Shown: one piece after another, positions 44,865 to 64,000 of the stretch | Layout of the letters: the number at the start of each line of letters is the position of its first letter | Position numbering within the stretch: position 1 is the stretch's first letter | DNA from: Acinetobacter calcoaceticus | GTDB taxonomy: Bacteria > Pseudomonadota > Gammaproteobacteria > Pseudomonadales > Moraxellaceae | NCBI RefSeq assembly: GCF_900520355.1 | Contig: NZ_LS999521.1 | Coordinates: forward strand, 3,720,001 to 3,784,000 | Length of the DNA: 64,000 bases | Direction of reading: 5' to 3' | The notes under the pieces: generated by a model | The model's database searches: none | The model's input: the letters and a program-made list of their open reading frames with translations, nothing else | Told to the model about the DNA's origin: nothing | Made by a program: the position numbers and the translations under genes

Positions 44865-45058
44865 ATTGCCACCTTTATTTAAATACTTATTTATTGATGA
44901 GCTCATTCTAGGTTTGGGACATTGATAATTAAATACTCAAAATCCATATATATCGTTGCATAAACGAGATGATCAATTTGTATTTTTTTGATGTTTTATA
45001 CTGACTTTCCATAGGCTCACTGATAGGATTTGAGCACGGTTTACCACTTGCTCTTATC

Positions 45059-46909: not shown

Positions 46910-47752
46910 TTATCGTTTTGGCTCAATCTCACCAAACAATGTCTCATAAGCCTGAGTCAATTTATGTTCTGGTGCCAAATGAGCCAAAGGTAAATTTTTC
47001 TGATGCGATTCTTTCATTAAAACCGAAGGCGGTAACATGCTATTAAGTACAGGCAACCCTTCATCTTTCAACTGCTGAACCACTTCCCGAGGTAATTTTG
47101 CTTGAGCTTGAAATTGGTTGACAACAATTCCTTCAATTTCCAAGCGATCATTATGATCATCTTGCGTTTCGAGAACATTTTCAATCAATGTTTGTAACGC
47201 GCGCTTTGAAAAGACATCACAATCGAAGGGAATTAAGACTTTATCTGCTGCTATCAGTGCTGACAAAGTAAAAAAGTTAAATGCAGGTGGTGTATCTATA
47301 TAGATACGATCATATCGTCCAATTAAGTTTTGAATTGAATCACGCAGTTTATAAATTTTATGTTTACTTTCAAGAGCATGTTCAAGAGCACCAAGTGTTG
47401 GGCTAGCAGGAAGCACGTCTAATTTTGCAAAAGGAGTTGAATGCACAAAGCTATCAATATCTTTATTTCGTGGGGCTTTTAAAATCGAACCTAATGCATT
47501 ACCGATTAAACCTTTTTGTTGATTGTTTCCCAACACATCATCAAAGAAATTTTCGATATTTGGTTCTATAATTGATTTTTCAGCAGAATAGGTTGCGTCA
47601 TCCCCTAAAAGGTATTGACTAGAATTAGCTTGAGGATCAAGATCAATGACCAATGTCCTGAAGCCATGTTTGGCACTAATTGCGGCCAAATTTACAGTAA
47701 TACTTGATTTCCCTACACCGCCTTTTTGGTTAAACACCACACGAGTTAACAT
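46910..47752 (-). CDS. parA: Orphan ParA/MinD-family ATPase
   Basis: The 280-residue P-loop ATPase has the deviant Walker A KGGVGKSS (about 10-17), then IDLDPQANSSQYL and DRIYIDTPPAFN (Walker B type). This is the ParA/Soj class that positions DNA or protein cargo. No ParB gene or parS site accompanies it, and the neighbours are a glycine-rich lipoprotein, sirB2 and bolA. It is therefore an orphan, and may position something other than the chromosome. The start ATG is followed directly by the conserved strand (MLTRVVFNQKGG). Confidence 0.88.
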   Translation of the reverse strand: MLTRVVFNQKGGVGKSSITVNLAAISAKHGFRTLVIDLDPQANSSQYLLGDDATYSAEKSIIEPNIENFFDDVLGNNQQKGLIGNALGSILKAPRNKDIDSFVHSTPFAKLDVLPASPTLGALEHALESKHKIYKLRDSIQNLIGRYDRIYIDTPPAFNFFTLSALIAADKVLIPFDCDVFSKRALQTLIENVLETQDDHNDRLEIEGIVVNQFQAQAKLPREVVQQLKDEGLPVLNSMLPPSVLMKESHQKNLPLAHLAPEHKLTQAYETLFGEIEPKR

Positions 47753-48542: not shown

Positions 48543-48735
48543 AGCTTTTCCTTTTACGATTATTCGTATATTTGAACCTAGTATACCCTGTCTGTACACA
48601 AACAAAAGTTGCTCTTGTACGCTTTGGCTTCAAACAAAATGTCTATTTATTCGGCAACTTATCGATAAAAATACTTCTAAATACTCATTTCTGTTTTTAT
48701 TTTATGCAATCAGCATAATTATTTGCATAAAGTTG

Positions 48736-48763
48736 TTGACCCATGTTTCGCTTAATGTATTAT
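48736..48763 (+). promoter_or_regulatory. tRNA-Gly promoter
   Basis: TTGACC (48736-48741) and TATTAT (48758-48763) are 16 bases apart, followed by a GC-rich AGCGGC discriminator and the first tRNA-Gly. This is typical of stable RNA promoters. Confidence 0.65.
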
Positions 48764-48772
48764 AAGCGGCAC

Positions 48773-48848
<76 letters not shown>

Positions 48849-48893
48849 AATTGGTTTTTTTTGAGAAAGTTTTCGTAAAAACTGCTTATATAT

Positions 48894-48969
<76 letters not shown>

Positions 48970-49121: not shown

Positions 49122-49898
49122 TTATAACGATTTAATCTCGTTATACTTATAAGGCGTTGGGGTTATTCGATGCATAGATATAAATGGTAATAATTGAAAA
49201 CAATCCAGATTAAAGCATTCTATATTGCGGCTCTGCTGTAAGCATATCGAAAAGATAAAGTTAGAATCATACATATAGCTTTCAAAATAATACTCTTCTG
49301 TCTTTTGAGTAGCATGGGTTGAATCGAGAAATTGTATACGTTCAGACAACACATGAAAGTTGAGCATTTTTAAATGTCGGCTCATTCCTTCGCCAGTACA
49401 TTTAATATAGGCTTCTTTTAAAGTCCATATTTGAAAAAACCGCTGATATACACTGAATGGATCAATCAGTTCATTTCCCTTAATCCATTCAATTTCACTC
49501 GGTGCTAACACACTATCAACACGCATCCAATCGAACACACGATCCACTTGTTCAATATCAACTCCTATTTCCCCTTCTTCAGTCACAGCAAGAATAATAA
49601 CGTCCGCTGAGTGAGTAAGATTAAAATACACCGCCTTGCTACCTTCTACAAAAGGCTTGCCGTTGGGATGTAATTGAATATTAACTTCATGGGGTGAGAT
49701 GCCTAGCTTATCCGCCAAGACAGTCTTCACTAACACACGAGAGATCAAGAAAAGACGAGCCGCCTTAGAGTGATATTGATCATATCTCAGCTTCTCTGCC
49801 GAACTGAGAAAGCCGAGATAATGACTCACTACCAAATGATCTTGTGGTACCCGTGAAACTGGGCAGACATAGACCTGCACTTGGGCACTATTAGACAT
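49122..49898 (-). CDS. Sfp-type 4'-phosphopantetheinyl transferase
   Basis: At 258 residues this is the Sfp class of enzymes, which move phosphopantetheine from CoA to a serine of carrier proteins. Magnesium-binding GVDIE lies at 112-116 and the WTLKEAYIK motif at 158-166; the segment KPFVEGSKAVYFNLTHS precedes them. It presumably activates the NRPS carrier domain (S1006) and the free ACP (S40) of this cluster. The ATG overlaps the stop of the upstream fusion gene by one base (TAATG), so translation is coupled. It is the last gene of the operon; no clear minus-strand terminator was found in the 110 bases beyond. Confidence 0.93.
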   Translation of the reverse strand: MSNSAQVQVYVCPVSRVPQDHLVVSHYLGFLSSAEKLRYDQYHSKAARLFLISRVLVKTVLADKLGISPHEVNIQLHPNGKPFVEGSKAVYFNLTHSADVIILAVTEEGEIGVDIEQVDRVFDWMRVDSVLAPSEIEWIKGNELIDPFSVYQRFFQIWTLKEAYIKCTGEGMSRHLKMLNFHVLSERIQFLDSTHATQKTEEYYFESYMYDSNFIFSICLQQSRNIECFNLDCFQLLPFISMHRITPTPYKYNEIKSL

Positions 49899-51751
49899 TA
49901 GGAAGCTGTGGTGCTGATGTACTTGGTCAGAACTGGTGCGAGATAGTCAGAAACCGCATCTACATGTGTAACGTGCGGATTATGGCCTGCACCAGCGATG
50001 ATATGCACAGGAATATCAGGATTTATTGTCGTAACCATTGGGTCGTTCTCTCCCACAATAATCTCGATTTTAGATCGAAGCTCATCCAGCAAAGTCGCTT
50101 GAGTTGCTCGCTGTTCTGGCAAATTAATGCGGTGCATATATTCACTAATATGCTTGGCTACCGACAGTCGACGTAATGAATCCATCGCATAACCAACAGA
50201 CGGATTTTGTTGTCCATCTGGATGTAGGTCTTTAGCAATCATATCTTTTGGCACAAAACGGAAAATCAGATTAGATATAGTTTTTATCTGAAACATTTTA
50301 GCGGCCTGCGCCTGAACAAAATAAGGCGATATGAGGATAAGACGCGCAACTTTATCTGGATATTTCTTTGCAAGATTCAATGCAAAGAGACAGCCTAGTG
50401 AGTGTGAAATAACAACACTATTTGGCGCTAAAAGCTTTGCAGCAGCATCAATAAACTGACGGTTGTTATCTTCCACCACCTCATAACTGCCTGAACGTCC
50501 AAGTCCCGGCAAGTCCATCATAGCCACCTGATCATATGTGATTTTATTGATTATTGGAGACCAGCATGCACTATCGAATGGAATCCCATGTAAAAATAAT
50601 GCAGATGATTTTTCTGATTTAACTGGCTGTTTAGTATAAATTTCAGTCCAATATCGATTCTGATAGCCAAAACCACTAGGTGTAGGTACTTGCATGCGAC
50701 CAAAACGTGTAAGAACCAAGCGATCAATCCAGCGAGAGAAATAAGGACTGATATTGATCAGATCCGCGATACCCATCTTCGCCGCCATCACCTCTGCCCC
50801 AGCAACATGATAGTGCTCGGTAGAAATGAAAGAGAGTTGCTCTTTAGAACCGTCAAGTAATACCTCAGGTAATTTCTCGAGCAGACCTTTGGGTACCTGT
50901 AAATGTGGTGAGCTGACTCCCAAGTGCTCGGCAGCTAGATGAACTAGGCTATGAAATTTCGGTGTCGCAGGATCAAGCAGCATATACTCCTGAGCAATGG
51001 TCTCAGGATAAGACATCGTTTGGATCAGAAAGCTCACGATATACTGCATATTGCACAGCGGCAGGAATGTGTCACGACCACCTGGCAATGCCAGCAGACG
51101 TCCCTGATATAGCTTATCAATCATGTCGGCGACACCTATATACTGCATATCACCATAAGTATAAAAACCATCAATGACTGTCGCTGGATTTATTGCAGTC
51201 CATGGCACATTTAAACGCTTACAGGCCTCAATGAAAGCTTGATAACCCAAAATTTTCGAAGCCTCATAGCCACCATGTTTGCAATACAACTCATCAGCCG
51301 ACTCTTGCGGTGGAGCAGCCACACGGTATCCGCCAATCCAGATAAATCGCTCAAGCTGCTTCAATGTTGCAGCCCATTCAATTAAGGCAAGTCCTGATTT
51401 AATGTTCGTACGTTCTGCTTCAGCTTTACTAATGCCCCAATTAAATGATGCAGCAAGATGATAGACAACATGAATCTTTGCCTGAGCATCCGCTAGCAGA
51501 GAGTCCAGCTTAAAATCACGGCTTAAATCATATTCAACAAACGAAATAGAGGGATCAACTAACCCTTGCGTTGCAATGAAACCTAACAGCTTATCTTTCT
51601 TGGTTGCGGCATTACGCAGCGCAGCAATCACCTGATGACCTTCGCGCAGAAGTTCAACGATCAGTCTGCTGCCAATAAAACCTGCTGCACCTGTTACTAA
51701 TATGGTCTTCCGTGAAAAATTATCTTTTTTTGCGTTATTTAAATTATCCAT
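49898..51751 (-). CDS. NAD-dependent epimerase/reductase fused to alpha/beta hydrolase
   Basis: The 617-residue cytoplasmic protein has two enzyme parts. Residues 15-345 are an extended short-chain dehydrogenase, with the NAD-binding GAAGFIG (21-27) and the YxxxK pair Y162/K166. Residues 380-617 are an alpha/beta hydrolase, with FLHGIPFDSACW, the nucleophile elbow SHSLG (S451), an acid near D570 and H590 in GAGHNPH. A likely use is redox tailoring and release or hydrolysis of the NRPS product, but the substrate is not shown. It lies 53 bases after the barrel gene and 1 base before the PPTase gene. The separate enzymes are common; this fusion I know only from this type of cluster. Confidence 0.88.
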   Translation of the reverse strand: MDNLNNAKKDNFSRKTILVTGAAGFIGSRLIVELLREGHQVIAALRNAATKKDKLLGFIATQGLVDPSISFVEYDLSRDFKLDSLLADAQAKIHVVYHLAASFNWGISKAEAERTNIKSGLALIEWAATLKQLERFIWIGGYRVAAPPQESADELYCKHGGYEASKILGYQAFIEACKRLNVPWTAINPATVIDGFYTYGDMQYIGVADMIDKLYQGRLLALPGGRDTFLPLCNMQYIVSFLIQTMSYPETIAQEYMLLDPATPKFHSLVHLAAEHLGVSSPHLQVPKGLLEKLPEVLLDGSKEQLSFISTEHYHVAGAEVMAAKMGIADLINISPYFSRWIDRLVLTRFGRMQVPTPSGFGYQNRYWTEIYTKQPVKSEKSSALFLHGIPFDSACWSPIINKITYDQVAMMDLPGLGRSGSYEVVEDNNRQFIDAAAKLLAPNSVVISHSLGCLFALNLAKKYPDKVARLILISPYFVQAQAAKMFQIKTISNLIFRFVPKDMIAKDLHPDGQQNPSVGYAMDSLRRLSVAKHISEYMHRINLPEQRATQATLLDELRSKIEIIVGENDPMVTTINPDIPVHIIAGAGHNPHVTHVDAVSDYLAPVLTKYISTTAS

Positions 51752-51804
51752 AAATCACCTTATTAGGGACTGGGGACTCCAGCATTGTTTTGGAGCGAAT
51801 TATC

Positions 51805-53079
51805 TTAAAAATTATATCGAATCTGGGCATACACCAGACTGTTATCTCTAAATTGTCCTAACACCGTATCATTTTTACCCCAGAAGCGATCTCCACCTGC
51901 ATTCAACTGCCAGTGATCATTGAGGCTGTAATTAATACGTACTCTCAACAATTCATTAGGTTCTGGTGCAAAATAGAATCCCGTTACTTCCAGCTTTAGA
52001 TTATCGTTCAGCAAGTTAAGTGCATAGCGCAGCATAGCTCCATACTGATCCTGCTCATATTGGTCACTGGTTGTTTGCTGATAACGGTAAACTTCTCTCA
52101 ATAATGGATTTGTTAGGCTGTCGGCAGATCTAAAATCCTCCGTATGTTTGTACACGCCTACTAAACTCAGCGTGGAGTTCTTTAATGACAATTCCGGTCC
52201 CATGACCACAGTTAAATTATTTTTCTTATGTGAAAGATCTTCGCTACCATCCGAGTCTGTCTTTGTATACGCAGCTTCACCTCGCCACACGAGATCGTTA
52301 TGGTTATAACTAAAATCAAATCCATAGACAGACATAGGATTATTTTTCAGCTGCAATGTTGCCTCCCCTGTTGGAGATGCAGAAAGAACTGACAGATCGG
52401 GCATATGATCCAAACCTGAGAAATACGATGCCCCAACATCCAGACCATCTACGGAATAATCCCAGCGCATTGCAAACGCAGGACGGCTCTTACGGTCTAT
52501 GTCATACTGAACACCAGCAATCTGACGCAATGGAATCACATCTGAACGACTACGCGGATACCACAATGCCGTCCATTTATTGGTTCCAGATTCAGGAATA
52601 TACGTCAATTTGAGAGCATCATTTCCAAGACGTTGATCTGTCTCATCTGGCACTAGACGCGTATAGTCACGGGGCGATAGGTTATCTGTTGGGTTAATCC
52701 CGTCAGCTCTCCCCCAGACTACAATCTGGCGACCAACGTCGAGATAAAACGTCTGATCCCAGTTATAAGATGCGTACAACTCACGTAAGTTGCGATTCAC
52801 CTTACTCACCTGATCTGGATTTACAGTGTGGTCCGTTTCGTCTCCAATATTTATGTCGTAATGGATCTTAAACTCAGGGTTAAACTTGAGGGTACCATTG
52901 GACCAGAAACTTGCTTGCCCAATGTTTTTTAACGAGCTTAGATCACGATCCGATGACCACACATCGAGCCTGGCTGAGTTCTGGCTCACAAAACTAATTT
53001 CGCTGTCATCTGCATAAGCATGCTGCAGTAGCATAAAGCTACTGCAGCATGCAAATACCCAATAGGTACCTTGTGTCAT
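51805..53079 (-). CDS. DUF1302-like outer-membrane beta-barrel
   Basis: At 424 residues it has a signal peptide (about 1-23, ending AYA) and repeating short amphipathic strands that end YAQIRYNF, as in outer-membrane barrels. The block YLDVGRQIVVWGRADGINP followed by NLSPRDYTRL is characteristic of DUF1302 proteins. DUF1302 genes usually accompany MMPL/RND exporters and LolA-like proteins, and here the start overlaps the exporter stop by 4 bases. It probably provides the outer-membrane end of the export route for the lipid product. No transport activity is shown by sequence alone. Confidence 0.85.
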   Translation of the reverse strand: MTQGTYWVFACCSSFMLLQHAYADDSEISFVSQNSARLDVWSSDRDLSSLKNIGQASFWSNGTLKFNPEFKIHYDINIGDETDHTVNPDQVSKVNRNLRELYASYNWDQTFYLDVGRQIVVWGRADGINPTDNLSPRDYTRLVPDETDQRLGNDALKLTYIPESGTNKWTALWYPRSRSDVIPLRQIAGVQYDIDRKSRPAFAMRWDYSVDGLDVGASYFSGLDHMPDLSVLSASPTGEATLQLKNNPMSVYGFDFSYNHNDLVWRGEAAYTKTDSDGSEDLSHKKNNLTVVMGPELSLKNSTLSLVGVYKHTEDFRSADSLTNPLLREVYRYQQTTSDQYEQDQYGAMLRYALNLLNDNLKLEVTGFYFAPEPNELLRVRINYSLNDHWQLNAGGDRFWGKNDTVLGQFRDNSLVYAQIRYNF

Positions 53080-56000
53080 TTTTCAAGACTCTGCGGTGAG
53101 AAAATCTTATCAGATAAGGTTTTTTCTGCGGCAAAATCACTGACGATAACTTGTGTCATATGCTGAGTTTGCAGATTCTTTGCCATAGATTTCATGGCCT
53201 GCCATCTCGGTTTCACTTTGCCATAAGGGCGGATATCCGTGAACTCAATATGCTTTAACGGCTTACCTGCAGTATCCCAAATGTCGATGGTTGCTGTAAC
53301 AAAGTTGTCTTTGAGTATGCACATGCGACGTTTGCTATAACCAAAGTCACTCTTCACCGTATTATTGATTGGCGTTGCTTCAATCATGTAGCAATCTTTG
53401 CCATTAAATTTGCCATCTGCAAGTTTAGTGTACTTCCAGTCACTTAACTTATAGCCAAGTACATCACCATAACTAAAGTCCGTACCGATAAAGGCATCAC
53501 CCTTGTTCGCCGATGCAAGACGGCGTACTTTTTTCAATGCAGGCAAATAGACAAACATGCTATCACTGCCTTTTGAGTTCTCAATCAACAGTGTCGTGGT
53601 TCCTTGTACATCTGCAGGCGAGATGAATTCGGTCAAACGCATATTATTTTGAGTATTCCCAGCCAGTTTGGTCATGTTCTTAGTTAGACGCACACGTTGA
53701 TCGCCATTTTTAGAGGTCAACACAAACTTGGCACTGGCAGTTGAGCTCAGAAATTTAGAAGCATCGTCACTACGATTAACAATGTCTTGAACTTCATCTG
53801 CATAAGATGTTTTAGGCATCGACATTGTGAGCGCCGTACCCAACAAAAGGCTTGTCACGACAGTTTGTGCAACGGTAATGTTCTTCTTATTTGAGGGAAA
53901 GATAAAACGAGGTTTCAAGATTAGAATCATTGTAGGTACCATAATTAAGGTTGCAAATACACTGAAAAGCATCGCAATCACAATAAACATCGCTAGCCAT
54001 TGATGGACGTGGAAGCCTTGCGACAAGGACAGCACACCGTAACCACCAGCAACCGCAGTCGCGACAAAAAGAGAAGCCTTACCAGCAGTACTTAAAGTTT
54101 TACGAATAGCGTCTTTGATATCGCCCCCTTCTTCGCGCAAGATTTCACGCAAGCGATAGAGGAAGTAAATGGCATAATCTGCACCAATACCGACAGCCAT
54201 GGCCGAGATGAGGGAGTTCGGAATATTGAGCGGAATGTCGAGCCAGCCCATCACACCAAAGATTGCAAGAATCGAGAATAGAAGTGGTGTCAGGACAATT
54301 AGTCCCGCTGAAAGTGAGCGGAAAACCAGCGCTGAGATAAAGAATACAGCAAATGAAATCTGTAGAATATTCATGAGCTTGCCGTGAACCATTGTTTCAG
54401 TCAAAGCAATGGTCTGAGTCACATCACCACCAAAACTTACGACAGCTTTATCGCCCAACTGACCCGCCATATACGTTTTTAGCGACTCAAGGATTTCTTT
54501 GATGCGGTGATTACTACCCGTTTTCAGCAGAATCGTGATCTTGGCATAGCGCTGAGTCGTATCAATGTAAGATTCAAAATCAGTCGGCTCACCAGACATT
54601 GAGTACAACAGCAGATACTGAGCAACAACATCTTTGGTTGCTGGAACCTGAAATGCCTGTGGCTGATCGGCATTCATTGCCTGATTCATTCTCTTGATAT
54701 AGTCCACGATAGAGATTGTTTTACCGACCTCTGGAATCGAATTCGCGAACTTTTCTGTATTATCAATCGCTTTTAGGATTTCTGGGTTTTCAATACCATC
54801 ACGAACTTTTGTATCGACCATGATGTAAAGGCTGTTTGTACCGCCAAGAGACTGATTTAAAAATCTGTCATCCTGCTGCATCGGTAGGTCATGTGAGAAG
54901 AAGTTGCGGCTATCGTTATCCACTACAATACGGCTAGTGCCAATAGCAAGAAAGACGCCCAGTACTGCAATCACCGTCATTAGCATCATTCGCGGACGAA
55001 CTGACAAAATGACATCGCCAATGCGTTTTGGAATCCAGTCCCAGATTGGTAAACCTTTGCGTGCAACCTTGGTAACCGAAGGCGGTGGTAGCATCGAGCG
55101 AAGTACAGGAATAAAAGTCATCTCAATGATCAGTGTACTGATGATCCCGATTCCTGTAAAAATACCGAATGAACGGATGGTCGGAATATTAAAGGTCAAC
55201 AGCGAGAAGAATCCAGCCGCTGCAATTCCGCCAGCCAATATCATAACTGGACCAACACGAACCATAGACTGCACCACGGCTTCGCTATTCGCAGCTTTAG
55301 GTTCCATACCTTGGGCAGTCAGTCGATCAAAGTCTTCATAGTATCGCTTGAGCAACTGTACGGCGTGCCCTGCCGCAATGGCCAGAATCAGAATTGGTGT
55401 AGGAGAGTTAAAAATATCCATTGGCTGTTTGAACAGACCCATCATACCCATACCCCACGCCACAGCCAGTAAAGCTGTAACTAGTGGAAGGATCAAACCC
55501 TGCTTACTGCGGAATGCTTCGAAGTGCAATAACCCAATGACCAGTATGGCAATTGGGAACAAGATATTGATCCGTTTAGAGTAATCTTCGGCTTTATCCA
55601 AATAAACAGGATTGCCACCGACACTGATGGTCATATCCTTAGACTGTTCGTCTGCTACGATTTTATTGATCGGAGCCATCATTTTTTGGAAGCCCTCTGG
55701 ACTTTCCTCAAGCTCAAGCAAAATAGCAGCAGTTTTCTGATCTTTAGATACGACCGAATTCATGTAGATTGGGTTCAGTGCCAGCAATTTTTTCAGCTGA
55801 TCAACATCACTCTCGGTTACAGAACTGTTCGGTAGTAGTTTCTTGGCATCAAATCCATCCGAATTGGCGGTGATCCCTTTGGCCTGCCGTGCAGCTAGGC
55901 TCATCAGGGTAGATCGAACCACACCCGGAGCATTATCAACTTCTTCGGTAATGCGTTTGACTTTTTCTAACACTTGCGGCTGATAAATATCACCCTGCTT

Positions 56001-56717
56001 CGGCGTAATACCAATCACAACCATGTACTTGGAGCCGAATTTCTTTTCAATCAGCTTAGTCGAGGTGATATAAGGATGTCCTTTGGGAGCAAGCGCATCT
56101 GGATCAATAATAATTTTGACGCCAGATGCAAGATATGCCAAGACAATCGTCAAGAGCATGACCACCGTCAACACAATACGGCGATGTTTGAGAATCCAAC
56201 GCGAGTATTGTTCCATCACCTGATGAGTCTTGCGAAGTGGTTTATTGGTCTCGTGCGTCTGCTTACCAACCGACTCATAGGCTTCACCCTTCTGAGCCAG
56301 TGCTTCAAGATTAGCAACGTCTTTCTTGAACTGAGCAAGAACCATCTTTTTCAGCAATGCCGCAGGTAATACGCCAAAAAAACTACCTGGCTCTGCCTCA
56401 AACACCCACTCTATCCATGTACCTTCAGGATGTGGTTTGAAGCGATAAGTACCTGTGTAGTGGAAAGGCCCTTCCACGACTTTGAACGCATACAATTCGT
56501 TCGGTACTAGATGTGTGATTTCACCTTTAAAGGACATCTCACGACCAATAAAGCTAAAACCGATTTCATACTTGCTGCCCACACGCGGAGTATTGTCTAG
56601 CAGTTCAGAATGCTTACATGACAATTGCCAGCCTGCATCATTGGCTGGGTTTGCAAGATAGTTGAAAACCTTGTCAATCTCGGCCGGTATGAGGAAAGCA
56701 TGTTCTATGGTCACCAT
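53076..56717 (-). CDS. SRPBCC - RND/MMPL exporter - LolA-like fusion protein
   Basis: The 1213-residue protein has three parts. Residues 1-150 form a lipid-binding SRPBCC (START-like) domain, starting MVTIEHAFLIPAEIDKVFNY. Residues 173-965 form an RND/MMPL transporter with about 12 membrane helices and two periplasmic loops. The last segment (about 947-973) resembles a signal/membrane helix leading into residues 974-1213, a periplasmic LolA-like domain (outer-membrane lipoprotein-sorting, with VYLPALKKVRRLA, DFSYGDVLGY). These parts are normally separate genes. One chain could take the lipid product from the cytoplasm, drive it across the inner membrane and carry it through the periplasm to the DUF1302-like barrel. 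It is 24 bases after the NRPS. Confidence 0.9.
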   Translation of the reverse strand: MVTIEHAFLIPAEIDKVFNYLANPANDAGWQLSCKHSELLDNTPRVGSKYEIGFSFIGREMSFKGEITHLVPNELYAFKVVEGPFHYTGTYRFKPHPEGTWIEWVFEAEPGSFFGVLPAALLKKMVLAQFKKDVANLEALAQKGEAYESVGKQTHETNKPLRKTHQVMEQYSRWILKHRRIVLTVVMLLTIVLAYLASGVKIIIDPDALAPKGHPYITSTKLIEKKFGSKYMVVIGITPKQGDIYQPQVLEKVKRITEEVDNAPGVVRSTLMSLAARQAKGITANSDGFDAKKLLPNSSVTESDVDQLKKLLALNPIYMNSVVSKDQKTAAILLELEESPEGFQKMMAPINKIVADEQSKDMTISVGGNPVYLDKAEDYSKRINILFPIAILVIGLLHFEAFRSKQGLILPLVTALLAVAWGMGMMGLFKQPMDIFNSPTPILILAIAAGHAVQLLKRYYEDFDRLTAQGMEPKAANSEAVVQSMVRVGPVMILAGGIAAAGFFSLLTFNIPTIRSFGIFTGIGIISTLIIEMTFIPVLRSMLPPPSVTKVARKGLPIWDWIPKRIGDVILSVRPRMMLMTVIAVLGVFLAIGTSRIVVDNDSRNFFSHDLPMQQDDRFLNQSLGGTNSLYIMVDTKVRDGIENPEILKAIDNTEKFANSIPEVGKTISIVDYIKRMNQAMNADQPQAFQVPATKDVVAQYLLLYSMSGEPTDFESYIDTTQRYAKITILLKTGSNHRIKEILESLKTYMAGQLGDKAVVSFGGDVTQTIALTETMVHGKLMNILQISFAVFFISALVFRSLSAGLIVLTPLLFSILAIFGVMGWLDIPLNIPNSLISAMAVGIGADYAIYFLYRLREILREEGGDIKDAIRKTLSTAGKASLFVATAVAGGYGVLSLSQGFHVHQWLAMFIVIAMLFSVFATLIMVPTMILILKPRFIFPSNKKNITVAQTVVTSLLLGTALTMSMPKTSYADEVQDIVNRSDDASKFLSSTASAKFVLTSKNGDQRVRLTKNMTKLAGNTQNNMRLTEFISPADVQGTTTLLIENSKGSDSMFVYLPALKKVRRLASANKGDAFIGTDFSYGDVLGYKLSDWKYTKLADGKFNGKDCYMIEATPINNTVKSDFGYSKRRMCILKDNFVTATIDIWDTAGKPLKHIEFTDIRPYGKVKPRWQAMKSMAKNLQTQHMTQVIVSDFAAEKTLSDKIFSPQSLEK

Positions 56718-56741
56718 AGTGGTTCTACCTTCTTGTATTTC

Positions 56742-59700
56742 TTATGCGGGAATTGGATACATCTGATCAATTGTCTGGGCAACAGCCACGACATTCTCAG
56801 CGTACATAATCGATGAATGATCACCAGGCAAATCAACCTGTGTAAATGTGTCTTTGACCAGTTGGTCCCAGCCTAGACTTTCCCCAAAATCTTCCAGCTC
56901 ATCTTTGGCCTTAACCAAGAGGATCGGAAAATCTTCAGGCTCTGGGAAATAGGTCTGGAGTGCGATGCCATTCGCCAAATAGGTATCAAAGTAAAGTCGG
57001 AAATCTGATGGGTCTGCATCTAGAGGTAGAACATTGATGGCCTTGGCTTCTTTAAGTACATGGTCAAACATGTGATCTGGACTCAATTCACGCAAATATT
57101 GCGCTGGTATCATCAGCTTTTTGCCATAAGGCGCAGCCAGATCGCGGGCAAACCAAGATAAAAGCATGGCATCGTCAGCATCATCAGGCATATTCTCAGC
57201 GATTGGAGCACGGGTATCGATCATGACAATACCTGTGACCTGCTGCCCCATTAGACGCAACTGATGACTGATCTCGTATGCAATCGCACCGCCAAAGCAC
57301 CAGCCACCGAGAAAATAAGGTCCCTCAGGTTGTGTCTTTTGCATTTCAGCAATATAGAGTGTCGCCATGTCTTCGATCGCCACTTCAGCAGCATCTGCTT
57401 CTATCAGGCCAGGAGACTGAATAGCACGTAAGGTACGATTCGGATTAAGATGACGCGAGAGTTCCATATAACAGAAGGTACTGCCACCAATCGGATGGAA
57501 CAACCACAGCGGCTGTTCGTAGGTTCCGCGGCGCAGCTCGATTACGATAGAGGGTTTAACTTCTTTATTGTCACGAATGATCTCAGCCAGACGCTCCACG
57601 GTGGAGTACTGTGCCAGCAAGGCAACTGGTAAGTCGGTACTGAATACCTTTTTGAGATGATTGATAAGCTTTACAGCCAGCAACGAATGCCCGCCCAACT
57701 CGAAGAAATCATCATATATCCCAACCCGTTTGACCGACAGGATCTGCTCAAAGGTAGTACAGAGCTCGATTTCGATCGGATCACGTGGCGCAACATAATC
57801 GTTACTTTGCTCAAACACAGGCTCAGGAAACGCTTTACGATCTAGCTTATTGTTAGCCGTCATTGGAAACTGGTCCAATGTAATAAACGTATTTGGCACC
57901 ATGTAAGCTGGTAGATGGATTTGCATCGTCTTTTTCAGATTAGCAATGTCAATCTCATGTCCAGTCACATACGCCACCAGTTTCTGATCATTGCTGGTAG
58001 TCGTCTTAACTAACACGACTGCGTCTGTGATACCGTCGATCTGCTTGAGAACATTCTCGATTTCGCCTAGTTCAATACGGAATCCACGAATCTTGACTTG
58101 GAAATCTAGGCGCCCATGATGAGTCAAATGCCCATCCGTATGTAGACAGACTTTATCTCCGGTACGGTAGAGTCGGCCAGCATTTGGCAGAGATGGCAAA
58201 GTTCTAAATTGCGCATCTGTCAGCTCAGGTCGATGCCAGTAATCAACCGCCAGACCATCACCTCCAATCCAAAGCTCCCCCATAACGCCTGGTGGCACTA
58301 AACGCTGCTGTTCATCAAGGACATAAAGCTGGGTGTTCGCCAGTGGTTCGCCTAAAGCGATATATTTTGCATCAGTGATACGGGCCGCACTCGACCAAAC
58401 AGTGGTCTCAGTCGGGCCATAGACATTCCAGAGACAGCCGACTTTGCCTAGCAGTTTTTCTGCCAGTATAGAATCTAGCGCTTCGCCTCCACAGAGTGCG
58501 GTCAACTCTAGATTGCCACTCCACTCGCTGTCTAAGAGCATTTTCCAAGAAGCCGGTGTTGCCTGCAAAACATTGATAGACTTAACATTTAGATAATCCA
58601 CCAATTGATTACCATCTTGTGATACCTCTCGTGGGCAAACATGCACCACACCGCCGTACATCAGCGGAATCAACAGCTCGAGAATCGAGATATCAAACGC
58701 ATAAGTGGTGATTGCTAACAGCTGAGTCTCAGTCGTTACTTGCAATCTATCATTCATGGATAGTAAGAAATTGATGATTGAAGGATGCCCAATACATACA
58801 CCTTTTGGCTTACCTGTCGAGCCTGAGGTGTACATCACATAAGCGGTCTCACCAAAGGCAAGCGTCTCGCGTACTTGCTCAAGGGGCACAACACCAGCTT
58901 GATTGATATCTAAGCGCGGTACAGAAACTGTGAGAGCATCCATCAACTCGGTTTGAGACAAGATGACTTTAGGTTCAGCATCTTCGATGATGTTATGTAA
59001 ACGTTCACTTGGGAAATTAGGATCTAGTGGTACATAGGCTGCCCCTGCCGCCCAGATCCCGAGGATTGCTGCTGGCAATAACGCCGTGCGGTCTAACATT
59101 AGACCTACACGATCGCCACGAGTAACGCCATGTACACGCAAATGTTCAGCGATACCAGCGATATGTTGACCTAACTCACGATAGCTAACCGTATGATCCT
59201 TTGAGGTTAGAGCATGATGATCACCACGCTCATCGATCTGCTTTAGAATCATTCCTAATAGATCATGTTGAGGATAATCAGTAGCCTGCCCACGTAGGGC
59301 ATCGAACTGGGTACCATCCTTATAATCAGGTGCGATATCTAACTCAACGATCTTACGCTCAGGATGAGACACCATCTCTGATAATACGGCTTGTAGCAGT
59401 TGCACCATATTGTCGGCAGACTGTGCAGAAAATAGCTCAGAGTTGTATTTCAGCACGCCAATCAGTTCGCCTTGATATTCACCGCCCATTTCCAGCGTAA
59501 GATCTAATTGACCTTCTTGCTGGCGAACCGGAAAACTTCCTAACGTCAGGTCTTGACCTACCAAGGTCGCTGGGGTCTGGATTGGTAAGAGAAGTTCTTT
59601 AAACTCATCCATGCCGCCTAGACGTTCCCAGAACATTCCCACCTGAGCCAATGGATTAATACTGCCATCACGCTTTGGTGAAACCGCCTCAACCACTCTG

Positions 59701-60701
59701 GAAAAGGCAACTTTTTGATGCTTGAGGCTCTGTCTTAATTGTTCCTGCACCTGCTGTGTGAACTGTCGTAAAGTCTGATCAGCATCGATGTCCATGTGAA
59801 TAGCAATCGTATTGACAAACTGCCCCAGTGCATTGCGCAAAGAGCGTTCAAGTCGACCAGCTACCGGTGTGGCAATGACTAGATTATTTTCATGAGATAG
59901 TTTGTGTAGCAGAATATAGAAACCCGATAGTACAAGTCCGAATAGCGTGATCTCATAATCTTTCGCCAAGCTCACAAGACCAGATGACACTGACTCAGGC
60001 ACACGGAAAACCAGTGAGCTGCCTTTATGTTGCTGCACAGCTGGACGTGGATAATCAAGCGGAATGCTATGCACGTGTGGTGCATGCTGTAACGCATTTT
60101 TCCAGAAAATTAGACTCTCATCAGCATCATCGGTCGCTGTGCTCTGCTGATTATCTGCATACTGTGCGAACTCGATTCCGTTCACCATATCCGACTCTGT
60201 AACAAGTCCAAAACGTTGGCAGACATCACGCAACAAGAGACCGATCGACCAGAAATCCATTAGGGCATGATGAATCACAACCGCAATCACATAGTGATTC
60301 TGACCGCGCTCATAGCAATGAATACGCCACAGCGGTGGCTGGGTCAGGTCAAAGGGCTGCTTCGTATCCTGCTCGACTAATTGTGTCAAATCAGACGCAT
60401 CGAGATGGCGAGCATCAGACACGATAATATTAGGATAGATACGATCCCAGATAAGTTGCTCAATACCCTGATCATTGGCAGGCATACTTACACGCAGCAG
60501 CGGATAATCATGCATTACCGCCTCTAGAATCTCCATCGGCTTGTTGCCTAATGGTTGGTTAACCTTCACATCAAAGGCCACCACCATATTGTAGGCACTG
60601 CACGTCGACTCAAGCCGCTGGATATACCAGATGCCGAGCTGTTCTGCAGAAATCGCATGGCGCGATAGAATTGCAGGTTCCAGTCGTACAAGGTTGTTCA
60701 C
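56742..60701 (-). CDS. Single-module NRPS, C-A-T-TE, predicted glycine-activating
   Basis: The 1319-residue NRPS has a condensation domain (about 15-445) with HHALMDFW at 144-151 (catalytic His145). The adenylation domain (about 480-955) has YTSGSTGKPKG at 624-634. A carrier domain carries GGHS with S1006, and the thioesterase (about 1055-1319) has GWCFGG with C1135 in place of the usual Ser, plus D1162 and H1295. The A-domain pocket residues align as D670, I671, L674, Q713, L736, G738, V760, V768, W769, K952 (DILQLGVVWK), close to the glycine code DILQLGLIWK. It should condense an ACP-bound fatty acyl group with glycine and release it. It overlaps the ACP gene by 4 bases. Confidence 0.93.
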   Translation of the reverse strand: MNNLVRLEPAILSRHAISAEQLGIWYIQRLESTCSAYNMVVAFDVKVNQPLGNKPMEILEAVMHDYPLLRVSMPANDQGIEQLIWDRIYPNIIVSDARHLDASDLTQLVEQDTKQPFDLTQPPLWRIHCYERGQNHYVIAVVIHHALMDFWSIGLLLRDVCQRFGLVTESDMVNGIEFAQYADNQQSTATDDADESLIFWKNALQHAPHVHSIPLDYPRPAVQQHKGSSLVFRVPESVSSGLVSLAKDYEITLFGLVLSGFYILLHKLSHENNLVIATPVAGRLERSLRNALGQFVNTIAIHMDIDADQTLRQFTQQVQEQLRQSLKHQKVAFSRVVEAVSPKRDGSINPLAQVGMFWERLGGMDEFKELLLPIQTPATLVGQDLTLGSFPVRQQEGQLDLTLEMGGEYQGELIGVLKYNSELFSAQSADNMVQLLQAVLSEMVSHPERKIVELDIAPDYKDGTQFDALRGQATDYPQHDLLGMILKQIDERGDHHALTSKDHTVSYRELGQHIAGIAEHLRVHGVTRGDRVGLMLDRTALLPAAILGIWAAGAAYVPLDPNFPSERLHNIIEDAEPKVILSQTELMDALTVSVPRLDINQAGVVPLEQVRETLAFGETAYVMYTSGSTGKPKGVCIGHPSIINFLLSMNDRLQVTTETQLLAITTYAFDISILELLIPLMYGGVVHVCPREVSQDGNQLVDYLNVKSINVLQATPASWKMLLDSEWSGNLELTALCGGEALDSILAEKLLGKVGCLWNVYGPTETTVWSSAARITDAKYIALGEPLANTQLYVLDEQQRLVPPGVMGELWIGGDGLAVDYWHRPELTDAQFRTLPSLPNAGRLYRTGDKVCLHTDGHLTHHGRLDFQVKIRGFRIELGEIENVLKQIDGITDAVVLVKTTTSNDQKLVAYVTGHEIDIANLKKTMQIHLPAYMVPNTFITLDQFPMTANNKLDRKAFPEPVFEQSNDYVAPRDPIEIELCTTFEQILSVKRVGIYDDFFELGGHSLLAVKLINHLKKVFSTDLPVALLAQYSTVERLAEIIRDNKEVKPSIVIELRRGTYEQPLWLFHPIGGSTFCYMELSRHLNPNRTLRAIQSPGLIEADAAEVAIEDMATLYIAEMQKTQPEGPYFLGGWCFGGAIAYEISHQLRLMGQQVTGIVMIDTRAPIAENMPDDADDAMLLSWFARDLAAPYGKKLMIPAQYLRELSPDHMFDHVLKEAKAINVLPLDADPSDFRLYFDTYLANGIALQTYFPEPEDFPILLVKAKDELEDFGESLGWDQLVKDTFTQVDLPGDHSSIMYAENVVAVAQTIDQMYPIPA

Positions 60702-60958
60702 GAAGCAACTCCCTGCTCCAACTGAGAAACGATATATTCAGCCAACGCATTAATGGTCGGGTAATCCCATAGTAGTGTCGGCTCAAGCTCCAGTTGTGTC
60801 AGATCCTCGAGATCTCCAGACACTGACAAAGCGACAATCGAATCGAGACCGTAACTGGTAAATTTTTTCTGTGGATCAAGAGTTTGGGGCTCGACACGCA
60901 TTTCTTTGGCTACTAGCGTGCGAATGATTTCGCTCCAGTAAGCTTTATCTTTATTCAT
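60698..60958 (-). CDS. Acyl carrier protein
   Basis: This 86-residue free-standing carrier has the phosphopantetheine serine S40 in YGLDSIVAL and helix III around LLWDYPTINALAEYIV. It probably accepts a fatty acyl group from the fatty-acyl-AMP ligase and presents it to the dehydrogenase-like enzyme and then to the NRPS condensation domain. It overlaps its neighbours by 4 bases on both sides (acyl-CoA dehydrogenase upstream, NRPS downstream), so stoichiometric translation is likely. Confidence 0.93.
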   Translation of the reverse strand: MNKDKAYWSEIIRTLVAKEMRVEPQTLDPQKKFTSYGLDSIVALSVSGDLEDLTQLELEPTLLWDYPTINALAEYIVSQLEQGVAS

Positions 60959-62748
60959 GGGGTAATATCCTCTTTAACCGGTTTGGCATCACGCGGTGCC
61001 AGTGCAAAATCGATAACAGATAACATATGGTTGTTTGAAATTCGGTCTAGCAGATCTGCCAATGTGCTTTCACGTAGTGATGTCATTGGAGGGGACGTCT
61101 GCCCTTCAGCAGCATTTAGGAAAATGATCAGCCATGCACCATCCTGCAAAGCAGGTCTTAGGCCACGACGGTTAAAGACCCAGAAACCCAGCACAGCAAT
61201 GCGAGCAAACAGCTCGGCATAGTCGCGGGCTAAGCTGAAACGTAATGTTTCGAACTCTTTAGCCGCTTCTGAACTTGAGAAATAATCTTGAATTTTTTGA
61301 TCTAGCGTGCGCTGCTCGATAAGAAGCTGATCAGCACGCTCACGTAGCGTGGACAGGGTCTCAGCAGCCAGCCCCACTGTAACGTCAGCATCGTTGAGCA
61401 TCTCGATGATCGTTCCCAGTGACTCCATCACCAAGTCACCATCTCGGTTGAAAATCTCAAGCTCGCGGAAATCAATAGCGTCGTTTTCCATCTGCAAGTC
61501 ATACAACTGGCGATAACGTGCTTTAGCTTCGGCTTGGTCGAGATGGGCGGCTTTTTTGCTACGCCCTTTATTGGCAGATTTGAGCTGAAAACTCAGGCTG
61601 TCTAGACAGACGGTGCTACTGCCGTCAAATACACTAACGATCAGATGATCTCTGAAAGCTTTCTGGTACATTCCATCAGCATATGCATTTCTTAAGAAAA
61701 AACGCGACCCAAGCACTGAGGAAGTAATTTTGGCCAGTGACTCTACATACTCAGGTACCAGTACCTTAATGATTGGTGACCATGTGCTGAACTGATTGAT
61801 ACAGACGTGTAGCCCGCGCGCACCAACGAGTGATAGAACCTCAGCTGCTAACAAATAGGCATAGGCTGTAGCAAGTTGCTCACGTACCAGCGGAATGTTA
61901 ATCACTTTTTTGTTATACAACTCGCGCTCGATAGCAAACTCGGTTGCGATGCGTAACATCGTATCGCCCGCACCCAGAGAGAAGCTGCTGCAATATGCAC
62001 GCGTCACCTGTAGTGTCTTGAGTCCAAGCTCTAACCCCTGACCTTCTTCACCAATCAGGGCATCTTTATGAATTTCAGCATTGTTAAAGCCGATACCACT
62101 GATATCTAGCCCACGCATCCCCACTGTTGGCAGGCGATTCAGGCTATAAGTTCCTTTAGACGCCATGTGACGCTTATCAAGCCAGAATGCGCTCAGACTA
62201 CGCGGTCCACGATCATCTGATGTTTTAGCAATCAGACTTAAAGAGTCACCTAGAGTAGCGCGATTGATCGACCACTTTTCACCATTTAAGATGTACTTGC
62301 TCTCGGCAGCTTGTGCAGTTACTTCACTGGATAGCAGGTCGGCTCCATGCGCTTTCTCGCTATAAGCCAGCGCTGGTGCAGCACCCTGCAAAATCCGGGT
62401 AGCTATGTTTTCGCATTGACTAGAGTTACCGCCGATCCATACGATCACGGACCAAGCATTCGTGCTATAGGTCGAATTAATTGTTAGATCACGTCGTGCC
62501 AGCACGCGATGCAGATATAACAACTCTTCACCAATTTCCATGCAACCTCCGAGCTCTGAAGGGACATAAAAACGGTTCATGCCCACAGCATTCAGAAAAT
62601 CAACAGCACGCTGAGGGTATTGCTCCTTCTCATCACGCTCGATGGCCGCGGACCAAGAAAAATCATTATTGGTATCATGTACGGAGCCTAAAATTTGCTC
62701 CAGACGAGCAGCAGATTGAAACTGCCGCAAATTGGACGTAAGTGACAT
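60955..62748 (-). CDS. Acyl-CoA dehydrogenase-like flavoenzyme
   Basis: The 597-residue protein has the acyl-CoA dehydrogenase fold. The N-terminal helical part includes YVPSELGGCMEIGEELLYLHRV, and the middle beta domain has ALAYSEKAHGADLLSSEV and NGEKWSINRATLGD. The C-terminal helical domain includes FSLGAGDTMLRIATE. A long C-terminal extension (about 400-597) exceeds the usual 380-residue core. In this setting it probably makes an alpha,beta-double bond in the ACP-bound fatty acyl chain, with FAD as cofactor; this is inferred from its place between acyl ligase and ACP. It overlaps the ACP gene by 4 bases. Confidence 0.9.
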   Translation of the reverse strand: MSLTSNLRQFQSAARLEQILGSVHDTNNDFSWSAAIERDEKEQYPQRAVDFLNAVGMNRFYVPSELGGCMEIGEELLYLHRVLARRDLTINSTYSTNAWSVIVWIGGNSSQCENIATRILQGAAPALAYSEKAHGADLLSSEVTAQAAESKYILNGEKWSINRATLGDSLSLIAKTSDDRGPRSLSAFWLDKRHMASKGTYSLNRLPTVGMRGLDISGIGFNNAEIHKDALIGEEGQGLELGLKTLQVTRAYCSSFSLGAGDTMLRIATEFAIERELYNKKVINIPLVREQLATAYAYLLAAEVLSLVGARGLHVCINQFSTWSPIIKVLVPEYVESLAKITSSVLGSRFFLRNAYADGMYQKAFRDHLIVSVFDGSSTVCLDSLSFQLKSANKGRSKKAAHLDQAEAKARYRQLYDLQMENDAIDFRELEIFNRDGDLVMESLGTIIEMLNDADVTVGLAAETLSTLRERADQLLIEQRTLDQKIQDYFSSSEAAKEFETLRFSLARDYAELFARIAVLGFWVFNRRGLRPALQDGAWLIIFLNAAEGQTSPPMTSLRESTLADLLDRISNNHMLSVIDFALAPRDAKPVKEDITP

Positions 62749-62780
62749 GAGTTTTTGCTCAAATGATTAAAGGGTAAGGA

Positions 62781-64000
62781 TTAAAACAAAGCACTTTTGA
62801 GTCGATTAAAAATGAGCGCGCGCACTTCTCGTTCCTTGATCATTGAGTTGAGTAGATTGGAGCTATAACGAATCAGTTGCCCCCGCTGCTCACGATCACG
62901 CATGACTTCTAAGCCATTCTTGACATAGTTTCGGGCCATCACCGTTCTACGGTTTGGATGAGTTAAACAGATCAGTTGACCGCGCTCGATCTGCTCTTTA
63001 ATTTTTCTTCTTCTGATTTTGCCGCTAGTGGTCTTGTTTATCCGACCTTGATGCAGCAAATAAACACCTTCTACAGGTAAGCCGATATCAGCTGCCACTT
63101 GCTCTTTAACCTGAGTTCTGATGGTTTCAAAATTAAGTGTCTTGTCTATCGACTTCTTTTTGATCTCAAGCACAACCGTGACGCCATCAGAATTACCGAA
63201 ATTCACTGCTGCAACACAGCCTTTACGGACAGCAGGATGCGCCACTTCGACGGAGCACTCGATATCTTGCGGGTAATAGTTTTTGCCACGGATGATGATC
63301 ACATCCTTAAGGCGACCGGTCACATACAAGTCTCCATTTTTGACAAAGCCCATATCACCAGTTCTTAAGTAATGTACTTGACTAGGCTTATCCGCTTTAT
63401 CGAGGATGGTTGCAGCAAAGGTTTCCTGATTGACCTCAGGCTTCTGCCAGTAACCCGCAGTGACACTCTCGCCTGCTAGCCAGATTTCACCGACTTCATC
63501 AATCCCTACCTCTTTGCGGGTATGCGGATTGACAATACGACAATCAAGATGTGTAGAGATCTTTCCACAGCTCACCACTTGCACGGCTGTCTGGTCTTGG
63601 CTGGTCTGCACCAAATTGGCATTCAACTTTTCACGATCGATTGAAATCGCATTGAGAGGACCAGTCACACCACTGACTAAGAGCGTAACTTCGGCCAAGC
63701 CATAGCACGGCAAGAAAGTATCCAGTCTCAATTTCGACTGAGTATTAAACTTCTCCATGAAGCGCTGCATGACATTAGCTTTGATCGGCTCGGCACCATT
63801 AAACAGCACACGCACACGGCTCAAATCAAGCAATGCAGCCTCATCATCCGAGATGCGATGTAGACACAATTCATAGGCAAAGTTTGGTCCACCACTAATC
63901 GTGATGCCTTTTTCACTAATGAATTGCAGCCACTTAAGAGGTTTACGGATAAAATCCAGCGGTGACATCACATAGCAAGTCAGACCTACATACACGGTCT
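62781..64000 (-). CDS. Fatty-acyl-AMP ligase (FAAL), 5' end beyond the window
   Basis: About 400 C-terminal residues are present; the reading frame stays open to the window edge, so the start is missing. The sequence matches the FAAL / long-chain AMP-ligase family: YVMSPLDFIRKPLKWLQFIS, ISGGPNFAYELCLHRI, FLPCYGLAEVTLLVSG, GYWQKPEVNQETFAA, YLRTGDMGFVKNGDLYVTGR and the RGKNYYPQDIE block. FAALs activate fatty acids as acyl-AMP and hand them to an ACP, not to CoA. It is the first visible gene of the operon, 32 bases before the dehydrogenase gene. Its C-terminal extension is longer than minimal FAALs. Confidence 0.92.
   Translation of the reverse strand, partial: TVYVGLTCYVMSPLDFIRKPLKWLQFISEKGITISGGPNFAYELCLHRISDDEAALLDLSRVRVLFNGAEPIKANVMQRFMEKFNTQSKLRLDTFLPCYGLAEVTLLVSGVTGPLNAISIDREKLNANLVQTSQDQTAVQVVSCGKISTHLDCRIVNPHTRKEVGIDEVGEIWLAGESVTAGYWQKPEVNQETFAATILDKADKPSQVHYLRTGDMGFVKNGDLYVTGRLKDVIIIRGKNYYPQDIECSVEVAHPAVRKGCVAAVNFGNSDGVTVVLEIKKKSIDKTLNFETIRTQVKEQVAADIGLPVEGVYLLHQGRINKTTSGKIRRRKIKEQIERGQLICLTHPNRRTVMARNYVKNGLEVMRDREQRGQLIRYSSNLLNSMIKEREVRALIFNRLKSALF

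What the first reader, a model, noticed from the sequence alone, without database searches (positions are those of the whole stretch)
49122..64000. Eight-gene lipid/NRPS operon predicted to make and export an N-acyl amino acid
Gene order (FAAL, dehydrogenase, ACP, one-module NRPS, RND-type exporter, DUF1302-like barrel, epimerase/hydrolase, PPTase) with 1- to 4-base overlaps at five junctions indicates one coupled unit. Seen: domains and overlaps. Known (from memory, A. baumannii): the locus is tied to surface motility and biofilm and to a lipopeptide called acinetin 505, near the abaI/abaR quorum-sensing genes. Inferred: activation of a fatty acid, alpha,beta-desaturation on ACP, condensation with one amino acid, release, tailoring and export. 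The final structure is not derivable from sequence.
Basis: partly seen in the sequence, partly recalled or inferred. Interest (0 to 1): 0.8.

Follow-up and report, generated by a model that had tools for sequence, protein, structure and literature searches.

The report
Acinetobacter operon making a reactive lipid-glycine
This is the known Acinetobacter surface-motility operon; its genes and the published mass data together suggest that it makes a glycine carrying a chemically reactive fatty chain, probably an epoxide, which would explain the odd structure reported for its product.

Summary
The operon is real and known: it is the A1S_0112-0119 ("acinetin 505") cluster, here in an Acinetobacter closest, among named records seen, to A. 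calcoaceticus. The eight genes are confirmed; four of seven junctions overlap, not five; the FAAL gene runs past the window edge, with abaR/abaM/abaI beyond. The one-module glycine NRPS agrees with the crystal structure of its ortholog. New here: (1) the published Ac-505 formula and fragments fit N-(2,3-epoxyhexadecanoyl)glycine opened by glutathione and trimmed to Cys-Gly; one Gly and a C16 acyl was the only composition found. That would explain the "non-standard linkage"; the dehydrogenase-like enzyme is the likely desaturase-epoxidase (precedents HxcO/CtmB, EpxF). The 2017 paper already named an epoxide as a possible precursor. (2) The core ACAD-ACP-NRPS(Gly)-SRPBCC is shared by 28 loci in Acinetobacter, other Proteobacteria and actinomycetes, always with a cysteine thioesterase; SRPBCC is fused to the RND exporter only in Acinetobacter. 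(3) RND + LolA-like domain + OprD/AlgE-like barrel is seen only in the Gram-negative loci. The epoxide and its maker remain inference: no precursor has been detected, and HxcO was not located for comparison.

The parts
62781..64000 (-). FAAL (fatty acyl-AMP ligase), 3' part; the gene continues to 64670, outside the window
   Evidence: the solved structures named FAAL/FadD rank high
60955..62748 (-). ACAD-fold flavoenzyme, 597 aa: acyl-ACP desaturase and, by inference, epoxidase; Asp375 in place of the usual catalytic Glu, Cys381/Asp383 signature
60698..60958 (-). Free-standing ACP (ortholog of A1S_0114, PDB 4HKG)
56742..60701 (-). One-module NRPS C-A(Gly)-T-TE, GTG start, TE nucleophile Cys1135 (ortholog of AB3403, PDB 4ZXH/4ZXI)
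53076..56717 (-). Exporter fusion: SRPBCC (aa 1-141), MMPL/RND (two Pfam stretches, best 248-543), LolA-like (1025-1213)
51805..53079 (-). DUF1302 outer-membrane barrel with N-terminal helix (likely signal peptide); OprD/AlgE-like fold
49898..51751 (-). SDR + alpha/beta-hydrolase fusion; no match spanning both halves in 10 of 10 genomes of the other proteobacterial relatives
49122..49898 (-). Phosphopantetheinyl transferase (PF01648 + PF22624)

Best explanation
A quorum-controlled operon for an electrophilic lipo-amino acid. PPTase arms ACP and NRPS. FAAL loads a long fatty acid (C16 by the published formula) on the ACP. The ACAD-fold enzyme desaturates it at C2-C3 and, inferred, its own reduced flavin plus O2 epoxidises it to 2,3-epoxyacyl-ACP. 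The C domain joins it to glycine; the cysteine TE releases N-(2,3-epoxyhexadecanoyl)glycine (C18H33NO4). SRPBCC hands it on or finishes it; RND + LolA-like domain + porin-like barrel carry it across the envelope. Ac-505 is this product with the epoxide opened at C2 by glutathione, trimmed to Cys-Gly. Shown: gene order, domains, Gly pocket, Cys at the nucleophile place, formula fit; in print: one transcript, Gly in the crystal, need of the ACP for Ac-505. Inferred: the epoxide, its maker, the roles of SRPBCC and the SDR-hydrolase, the export path.
For: Formula: over acyl chains C8-C24 with 0-3 unsaturations or rings, O2-O5 and 0-3 Gly, C23H43N3O7S is reached by adding Cys-Gly only to a C16 acyl with one ring/double bond, O3, and one Gly; precursor C18H33NO4, MH+ 328.2482. 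Fragments (PMC5376624): 310.2 = loss of H2O and Cys-Gly; 310.2 to 235.2 loses glycine giving C16H27O+, as an N-acylglycine amide would; negative-mode loss of C14H28O (tetradecanal) fits a retro-aldol of 3-OH, 2-S on a C16 chain. [quoted passage not shown] Enzyme precedent: HxcO/CtmB assigned to trans-2,3-epoxyacyl chains (PMC9136287 passages); EpxF shows one ACAD-fold enzyme doing desaturation and epoxidation (PMC12624316). Family: TE Cys in 28 of 28 loci, Gly pocket in 27 of 27 readable, SRPBCC after NRPS in 28 of 28. gshA mutants are among the surface-motility mutants (PMC7997844). Regulation: a CTGTAA-N4-TTACAG-like site about 165 nt upstream of FAAL in 9 of 9 Acinetobacter loci; three tested operon genes down in an abaR mutant.
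Against: The authors found no lipophilic precursor and no intact glutathione conjugate, and read the acyl-Gly link as neither N- nor O-linked; their Figure 5C and supplements were not seen. Purified Ac-505 did not restore the mutant. The Asp in place of the ACAD Glu does not point to epoxidation: 48 of 66 ACAD rows from 40 other Streptomyces stretches, many beside FAALs and probably desaturases, share it. HxcO/CtmB were looked for in 75 Streptomyces stretches and not recognised, so kinship is untested. gshA mutants have unchanged pellicles while A1S_0113 and A1S_0116 mutants of ATCC 17978 make less, so glutathione is not needed for every phenotype; its motility effect may be pleiotropic. Quorum control is not simple: the operon's first gene was unchanged in an abaI mutant of AB5075 and raised only in abaM.
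Confidence: 0.5

Rival explanations
1. One reading: the ACAD only desaturates; the product is a 2-enoyl- or hydroxy-2-enoyl-glycine, a Michael acceptor that glutathione attacks at C3.
For: ACADs next to FAALs in lipopeptide clusters are assigned to double bonds (PMC9113097 passages), and the Asp at the catalytic-base position is shared with such ACADs. A hydroxy-hexadecenoyl-Gly has the same formula C18H33NO4.
Against: A plain enoyl-Gly adduct would be C23H43N3O6S, one oxygen short. With S at C3 the reported neutral loss of C14H28O has no simple origin (my reasoning). No other obvious oxygenase is encoded in the operon.
Confidence: 0.22
2. The published reading: a hydroxylated C15 acyl chain joined by neither an N- nor an O-link to a Gly-containing moiety whose alpha carbon bears Cys-Gly, perhaps with repeated use of the A domain.
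For: Proposed by the authors from high-resolution MSn (PMC5376624).
Against: Loss of C2H5NO2 to an acylium-type ion C16H27O+ is the usual behaviour of an N-acylglycine (general knowledge); the composition leaves room for one Gly only besides Cys-Gly; no enzyme for a C-C bond to glycine is recognisable in the operon.
Confidence: 0.1
3. Ac-505 is a minor dead end and the real product is a TE- or SRPBCC-made ring or conjugate (for example cyclised from the N-acylglycyl thioester, or captured by an amine), to which the cysteine TE points.
For: TE Cys in 28 of 28 loci and TE is the best conserved NRPS domain outside Acinetobacter (mean 53% against 47% A, 40% T, 33% C). The Cys TEs of ObiF and SulM close strained rings (PMC6668435, PMC11298585 passages). 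Purified Ac-505 was inactive.
Against: AB3403 has its Asp at the ordinary position, unlike ObiF/SulM; glycine has no side chain for a beta-lactone; no such product was seen in the papers opened.
Confidence: 0.15

Closest known systems
A. baumannii A1S_0112-A1S_0119 / ABBFA_003406-003399 operon (acinetin 505)
   Same: Same genes, order and abaR/abaI neighbourhood; ACP ortholog is PDB 4HKG and NRPS ortholog PDB 4ZXH/4ZXI. This is the ortholog.
   Different: The product reading differs: N-(2,3-epoxyacyl)glycine trapped by glutathione instead of a lipopeptide with non-standard linkages.
CDA / cystargamide type 2,3-epoxyacyl lipopeptide initiation (HxcO, CtmB)
   Same: ACAD (CtmB 591 aa) with an ACP before an NRPS; like CDA, the actinomycete relatives here have ketosynthase frames (9 of 9) and no frame whose best match is the FAAL in the held DNA.
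   Different: One residue only; FAAL loading in the Gram-negative loci; kinship of the ACAD to HxcO not tested.
FAAL-ACAD-ACP starter cassettes of taromycin/friulimicin-type lipopeptides
   Same: Same starter genes; in similar Streptomyces loci one ACAD has the same Asp at the catalytic-base position.
   Different: The ACADs of the Gly-NRPS loci form their own clade with C381/D383 (support 0.995); one module only.
AmeABCD (HAE3 RND + DUF1329 + DUF1302 exporter, Castellaniella)
   Same: RND near HAE3, LolA-superfamily periplasmic part, DUF1302 barrel (PMC6394551 passages).
   Different: LolA-like part fused to the RND; SRPBCC at the N-terminus; no AmeC-like gene among the eight.

Membership tests
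A1S_0112-0119 (acinetin 505) operon | Eight genes in the known order | tested here: met
A1S_0112-0119 (acinetin 505) operon | ACP and NRPS orthologous to 4HKG and AB3403 | tested here: met
   E 3.6e-48 (1-86 of 86) and 0 (1-1318 of 1319)
A1S_0112-0119 (acinetin 505) operon | Makes Ac-505 in this strain | not testable with these tools
   needs LC-MS
HxcO-type epoxyacyl pathways | ACAD-family enzyme of about 590 aa encoded beside an ACP and an NRPS | tested here: met
HxcO-type epoxyacyl pathways | Sequence kinship to HxcO/CtmB | tested here: inconclusive
   HxcO/CtmB not recognised in the 75 Streptomyces stretches fetched and inspected
HxcO-type epoxyacyl pathways | Forms a 2,3-epoxide | not testable with these tools
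   formula fits; chemistry needed
Canonical acyl-CoA dehydrogenases | Catalytic Glu in the YEGTS-like motif | tested here: not met
   Asp375; 120 of 121 aligned rows (query included) have D, one has a gap; another ACAD of the same genome has E
Ring-forming Cys thioesterases (ObiF, SulM) | Cys nucleophile | tested here: met
   GGWCFGG in window and 28 of 28 loci; the genome's other NRPS has GYSLGG
Ring-forming Cys thioesterases (ObiF, SulM) | Relocated catalytic Asp | not tested
   literature says AB3403 keeps the ordinary position
HAE3/Ame-type RND exporter | RND + LolA-superfamily part + DUF1302 barrel | tested here: met
HAE3/Ame-type RND exporter | Passes the TIGR00921 cut-off | tested here: not met
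   233.7 bits against 351.9; so it works like one, but is not filed as a member

The most novel reading that the evidence does not exclude
The operon is one branch of a cross-phylum family, not found described in searches, of one-residue NRPS pathways (ACAD-ACP-NRPS(Gly, Cys-TE)-SRPBCC) whose products are electrophilic N-(2,3-epoxyacyl)glycines, comparable to the epoxyamides cerulenin and E-64 (recalled). In Acinetobacter the exported electrophile or its glutathione adduct is the quorum-controlled agent behind surface motility and pellicle; acinetin 505 is only its trapped remnant.
Probability: 0.35. Interest if true: 0.75.

Novelty: new variant of a known kind. Interest (0 to 1): 0.55.

Why it matters
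The operon has been tied to motility since 2011 (Clemmer, as cited in PMC5376624), yet its product was left with an unexplained linkage and the NRPS was still called uncharacterised in a 2024 paper. A defined target (m/z 328.2482, glutathione adduct 635.3320) makes the question directly testable, and the shared Cys-TE/SRPBCC core gives a handle for finding the same chemistry in pseudomonads, Burkholderiales and Streptomyces.

Tried and rejected
Asp375 as a mark of an epoxidase: rejected, because many other ACADs of the wider clade share it (48 of 66 rows; 16 have His, 2 Glu). Lactone precursor: the lactone of a 3-hydroxyacyl-Gly lacks one oxygen (by hand; one search gives the open acid C18H35NO4). 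Condensation instead of addition of Cys-Gly: solved only by a saturated C16 O4 acyl with one Gly. One search prints 'matches False' for all rows; that is a string-comparison fault (S1 against S), put right. HxcO/CtmB search in Streptomyces: 168 of 392 genomes have relatives at E 1e-45; 75 stretches were fetched (20+20+20+15) and none was recognised as CDA- or cystargamide-like; FabH was not searched for, so a miss is possible. One scan of viral contigs with P0007: no relative. In one search, 8 of 10 Streptomyces frames had no Pfam match (wrong frames); GC3-picked frames were used instead. No Rfam family at gathering score in L005 4000-8000. The order-level search found only the own genome, 1 of 293; it scored at most 4 candidates per genome, so it is no proof of absence. 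My first wording, that the SDR-hydrolase is only in Acinetobacter, was too strong: only 0.5-0.9 kb beyond the barrel gene was held, and one search shows a separate SDR relative (32%, E 1.1e-32) on the other strand just beyond the barrel gene of L049. EpxF (9GN5) is not among the rows shown, so the position of its Ser406 relative to Asp375 was not tested.

Literature basis. PMC5376624: abstract and other passages, and sections 21 and 22 read whole; figures and supplements not seen. PMC12624316: parts 1-2 of 4. PMC8088503, PMC9657202, PMC7997844, PMC11298585, PMC6668435, PMC9136287, PMC9113097, PMC6394551: passages only. Drake 2016 and Clemmer 2011: not seen, only as cited; Giles 2015: search listing only. 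Cerulenin, E-64, the enzymology of HxcO and the A-domain position numbering: recalled. No paper with the epoxyacyl-glycine reading or the cross-phylum family turned up in searches (open-licence library; listings, of which only the papers named above were opened).
Full report
WHAT IS THERE. The window is G000:C1:3720001-3784000 of a 3.93-Mb single-contig genome. On the minus strand lie, in transcription order, FAAL (629 aa, 5' end beyond the window), ACAD-type flavoenzyme (597 aa), ACP (86), NRPS C-A-T-TE (1319), SRPBCC-MMPL-LolA (1213), DUF1302 barrel (424), SDR-hydrolase (617) and PPTase (258). Junctions: overlaps of 4, 4, 4 and 1 nt, gaps of 32, 24 and 53 nt. Beyond the window lie abaR, abaM and abaI (LuxR-type and AHL-synthase profiles for the first and third; abaM is named from position and the literature, as it matched no NCBIfam model). 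The ACP and NRPS are orthologs of PDB 4HKG and 4ZXH/4ZXI. So the locus is the published A1S_0112-A1S_0119 operon, here in a strain whose ACAD is 98% identical to that of A. calcoaceticus DSM 30006. In the genus it is patchy: the ACAD is in 12 of 149 genomes searched, own included.

WHAT IT MAKES: FROM THE GENES. The NRPS has one module. Its pocket reads DILQACVVW at the nine positions that I located by motif (numbering recalled), a glycine-type pocket; the ortholog crystal holds Gly and AMP, and glycine was the best of 20 amino acids tested (as told in PMC5376624). The starter genes load and oxidise a fatty acid on the ACP. The gene logic therefore gives an N-acylglycine with an altered acyl chain.

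WHAT IT MAKES: FROM THE PUBLISHED MASSES. Ac-505 is C23H43N3O7S. Testing C8-C24 acyl acids with 0-3 unsaturations or rings, 2-5 oxygens and 0-3 Gly, one composition gives the formula by addition of Cys-Gly: C16 acyl, one ring or double bond, O3, one Gly; one more gives it by condensation: saturated C16, O4, one Gly. Both demand one Gly and C16. The precursor C18H33NO4 equals N-(2,3-epoxyhexadecanoyl)glycine. Its opening by glutathione at C2 gives, after trimming, 2-(S-Cys-Gly)-3-hydroxyhexadecanoyl-glycine. The reported fragments follow: 506.29 minus H2O minus Cys-Gly = 310.24 (C18H32NO3+), minus glycine = 235.21 (C16H27O+, an acylium), and in negative mode loss of tetradecanal, C14H28O, leaving C9H15N3O6S. 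The paper's wording counts a second water before 310.2; its printed formula C18H32NO3+ fits one. This reading assigns the amide that the authors did not see, and their 'alpha-thio' bond. The authors had themselves suggested an epoxide or lactone precursor and glutathione trapping, but gave no structure for it and saw neither precursor nor glutathione conjugate. The reading rests on their text; Figure 5C and the supplements were not seen.

THE FAMILY. Of 120 genome-collection loci encoding a relative of the ACAD the tool kept 80. Of these 80, 28 hold an NRPS with a TE match: 9 Acinetobacter, 10 other Proteobacteria (Cellvibrio, Undibacterium, Pseudomonas, Derxia, Azohydromonas and one MAG) and 9 actinomycetes (Actinacidiphila, Streptomyces). 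The other 52 have no TE match in the held DNA; two of them (L054, L067) have part of an NRPS; 31 of 52 have a FAAL match and 46 of 52 an ACP match, and most are cyanobacteria. In the 28: the TE motif GGWCFGG with Cys in 28 of 28; Gly pocket DI[LV]Q...[VI]W in 27 of 27 readable, L044 being split; SRPBCC after the NRPS in 28 of 28, fused to the exporter in the 9 Acinetobacter, a small separate frame in 18, unclear in L041. TE is the best conserved domain outside Acinetobacter: mean identity 53% (n=19) against 47% for A (n=18), 40% for T (n=19) and 33% for C (n=18). An MMPL with LolA-like end and a DUF1302 barrel follow in 9 of 9 Acinetobacter and 9 of 10 other Proteobacteria (not L032) and in 0 of 9 actinomycetes, within the held DNA of at most 10 kb each side: the export set goes with the outer membrane. 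In the 9 actinomycete loci no frame has the FAAL as its best match (the FAAL matches counted are A domains), and all 9 have ketosynthase-like frames, as CDA has. A match spanning both halves of the SDR-hydrolase is absent from 10 of 10 genomes of the other proteobacterial relatives; one, that of L049, has a separate SDR relative (32%, E 1.1e-32) on the other strand just beyond its barrel gene.

CONTROL AND ROLE. A CTGTAA-N4-TTACAG-type site starts 164-169 nt upstream of FAAL in 9 of 9 other Acinetobacter loci and 166 nt upstream in the window's genome; a similar site ends 43 nt before abaI. CTG-N10-CAG alone is not enriched (6 found, 3.4 expected, 27 of 200 shuffles reach 6), and close relatives share promoters anyway, so this is only suggestive. 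Three tested operon genes fall in an abaR mutant (PMC9657202); in AB5075 some operon genes rise in an abaM mutant, while the first gene was not significantly changed in an abaI mutant, which speaks against simple control by the AHL. Mutants in A1S_0113, A1S_0116 and gshA are all surface-motility mutants, but gshA mutants keep unchanged pellicles and gshA also affects motility in P. aeruginosa.

VERDICT. The locus is known. The new content is a concrete, refutable product and enzyme assignment, and the recognition of a cross-phylum Gly-NRPS / Cys-TE / SRPBCC core. Probabilities (my judgement): N-acylglycine core 0.85; 2,3-epoxide as the precursor of Ac-505 0.55; the ACAD as its maker 0.5; RND-LolA-barrel export 0.7.

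Noticed in passing
window 48773-48848 and 48894-48969 (+): Two tandem tRNA-Gly (GCC) genes end about 150 nt from the operon's last gene, in an operon that consumes glycine; could be coincidence or an old insertion site.
   Followed up: partly
window 48702-48920 (-): A 72-aa frame is antisense to the first tRNA-Gly and part of the second and is most likely not a gene.
   Followed up: partly
window 44427-44906 (-): 159-aa protein with a weak HvfX-family match (42.8 bits, cut-off 80); no RiPP partner looked for.
   Followed up: no
window 46910-47752 (-): ParA-like partition ATPase on the chromosome; no ParB partner was looked for.
   Followed up: no
L006 (G000:C1:1965001-1985000): The genome's only other frame with condensation domains: 2388 aa, two C domains, Ser-type TE motif.
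   Followed up: partly
L005 4640-5520 (upstream of FAAL): 842-nt AT-rich intergenic stretch before abaR with a possible inverted repeat near -60 of FAAL, seen by eye only; no Rfam match.
   Followed up: partly
L034, L036, L040, L044, L045, L050, L052, L091, L093: Actinomycete relatives carry ketosynthase-like frames beside SRPBCC; 7 of 8 frames looked at show a Cys active-site motif. They may build the acyl chain or protect against a cerulenin-like product.
   Followed up: partly
L135-L174: Streptomyces loci often pair an ACAD with Asp and one with His at the catalytic-base position between FAAL and ACP.
   Followed up: partly
L029 21200-21721: A 4'-phosphopantetheinyl transferase domain follows the barrel gene directly in Undibacterium, so a PPTase is part of the cluster there too.
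   Followed up: partly
L049 end; G840:C1:6551399-6552352: Separate SDR relative of the Acinetobacter SDR-hydrolase just beyond the barrel gene, on the other strand.
   Followed up: partly
L033, L039, L042 and other cyanobacterial loci: FAAL-ACAD-ACP triads without the Gly-NRPS in the held DNA, with an N381/H383 ACAD signature.
   Followed up: partly
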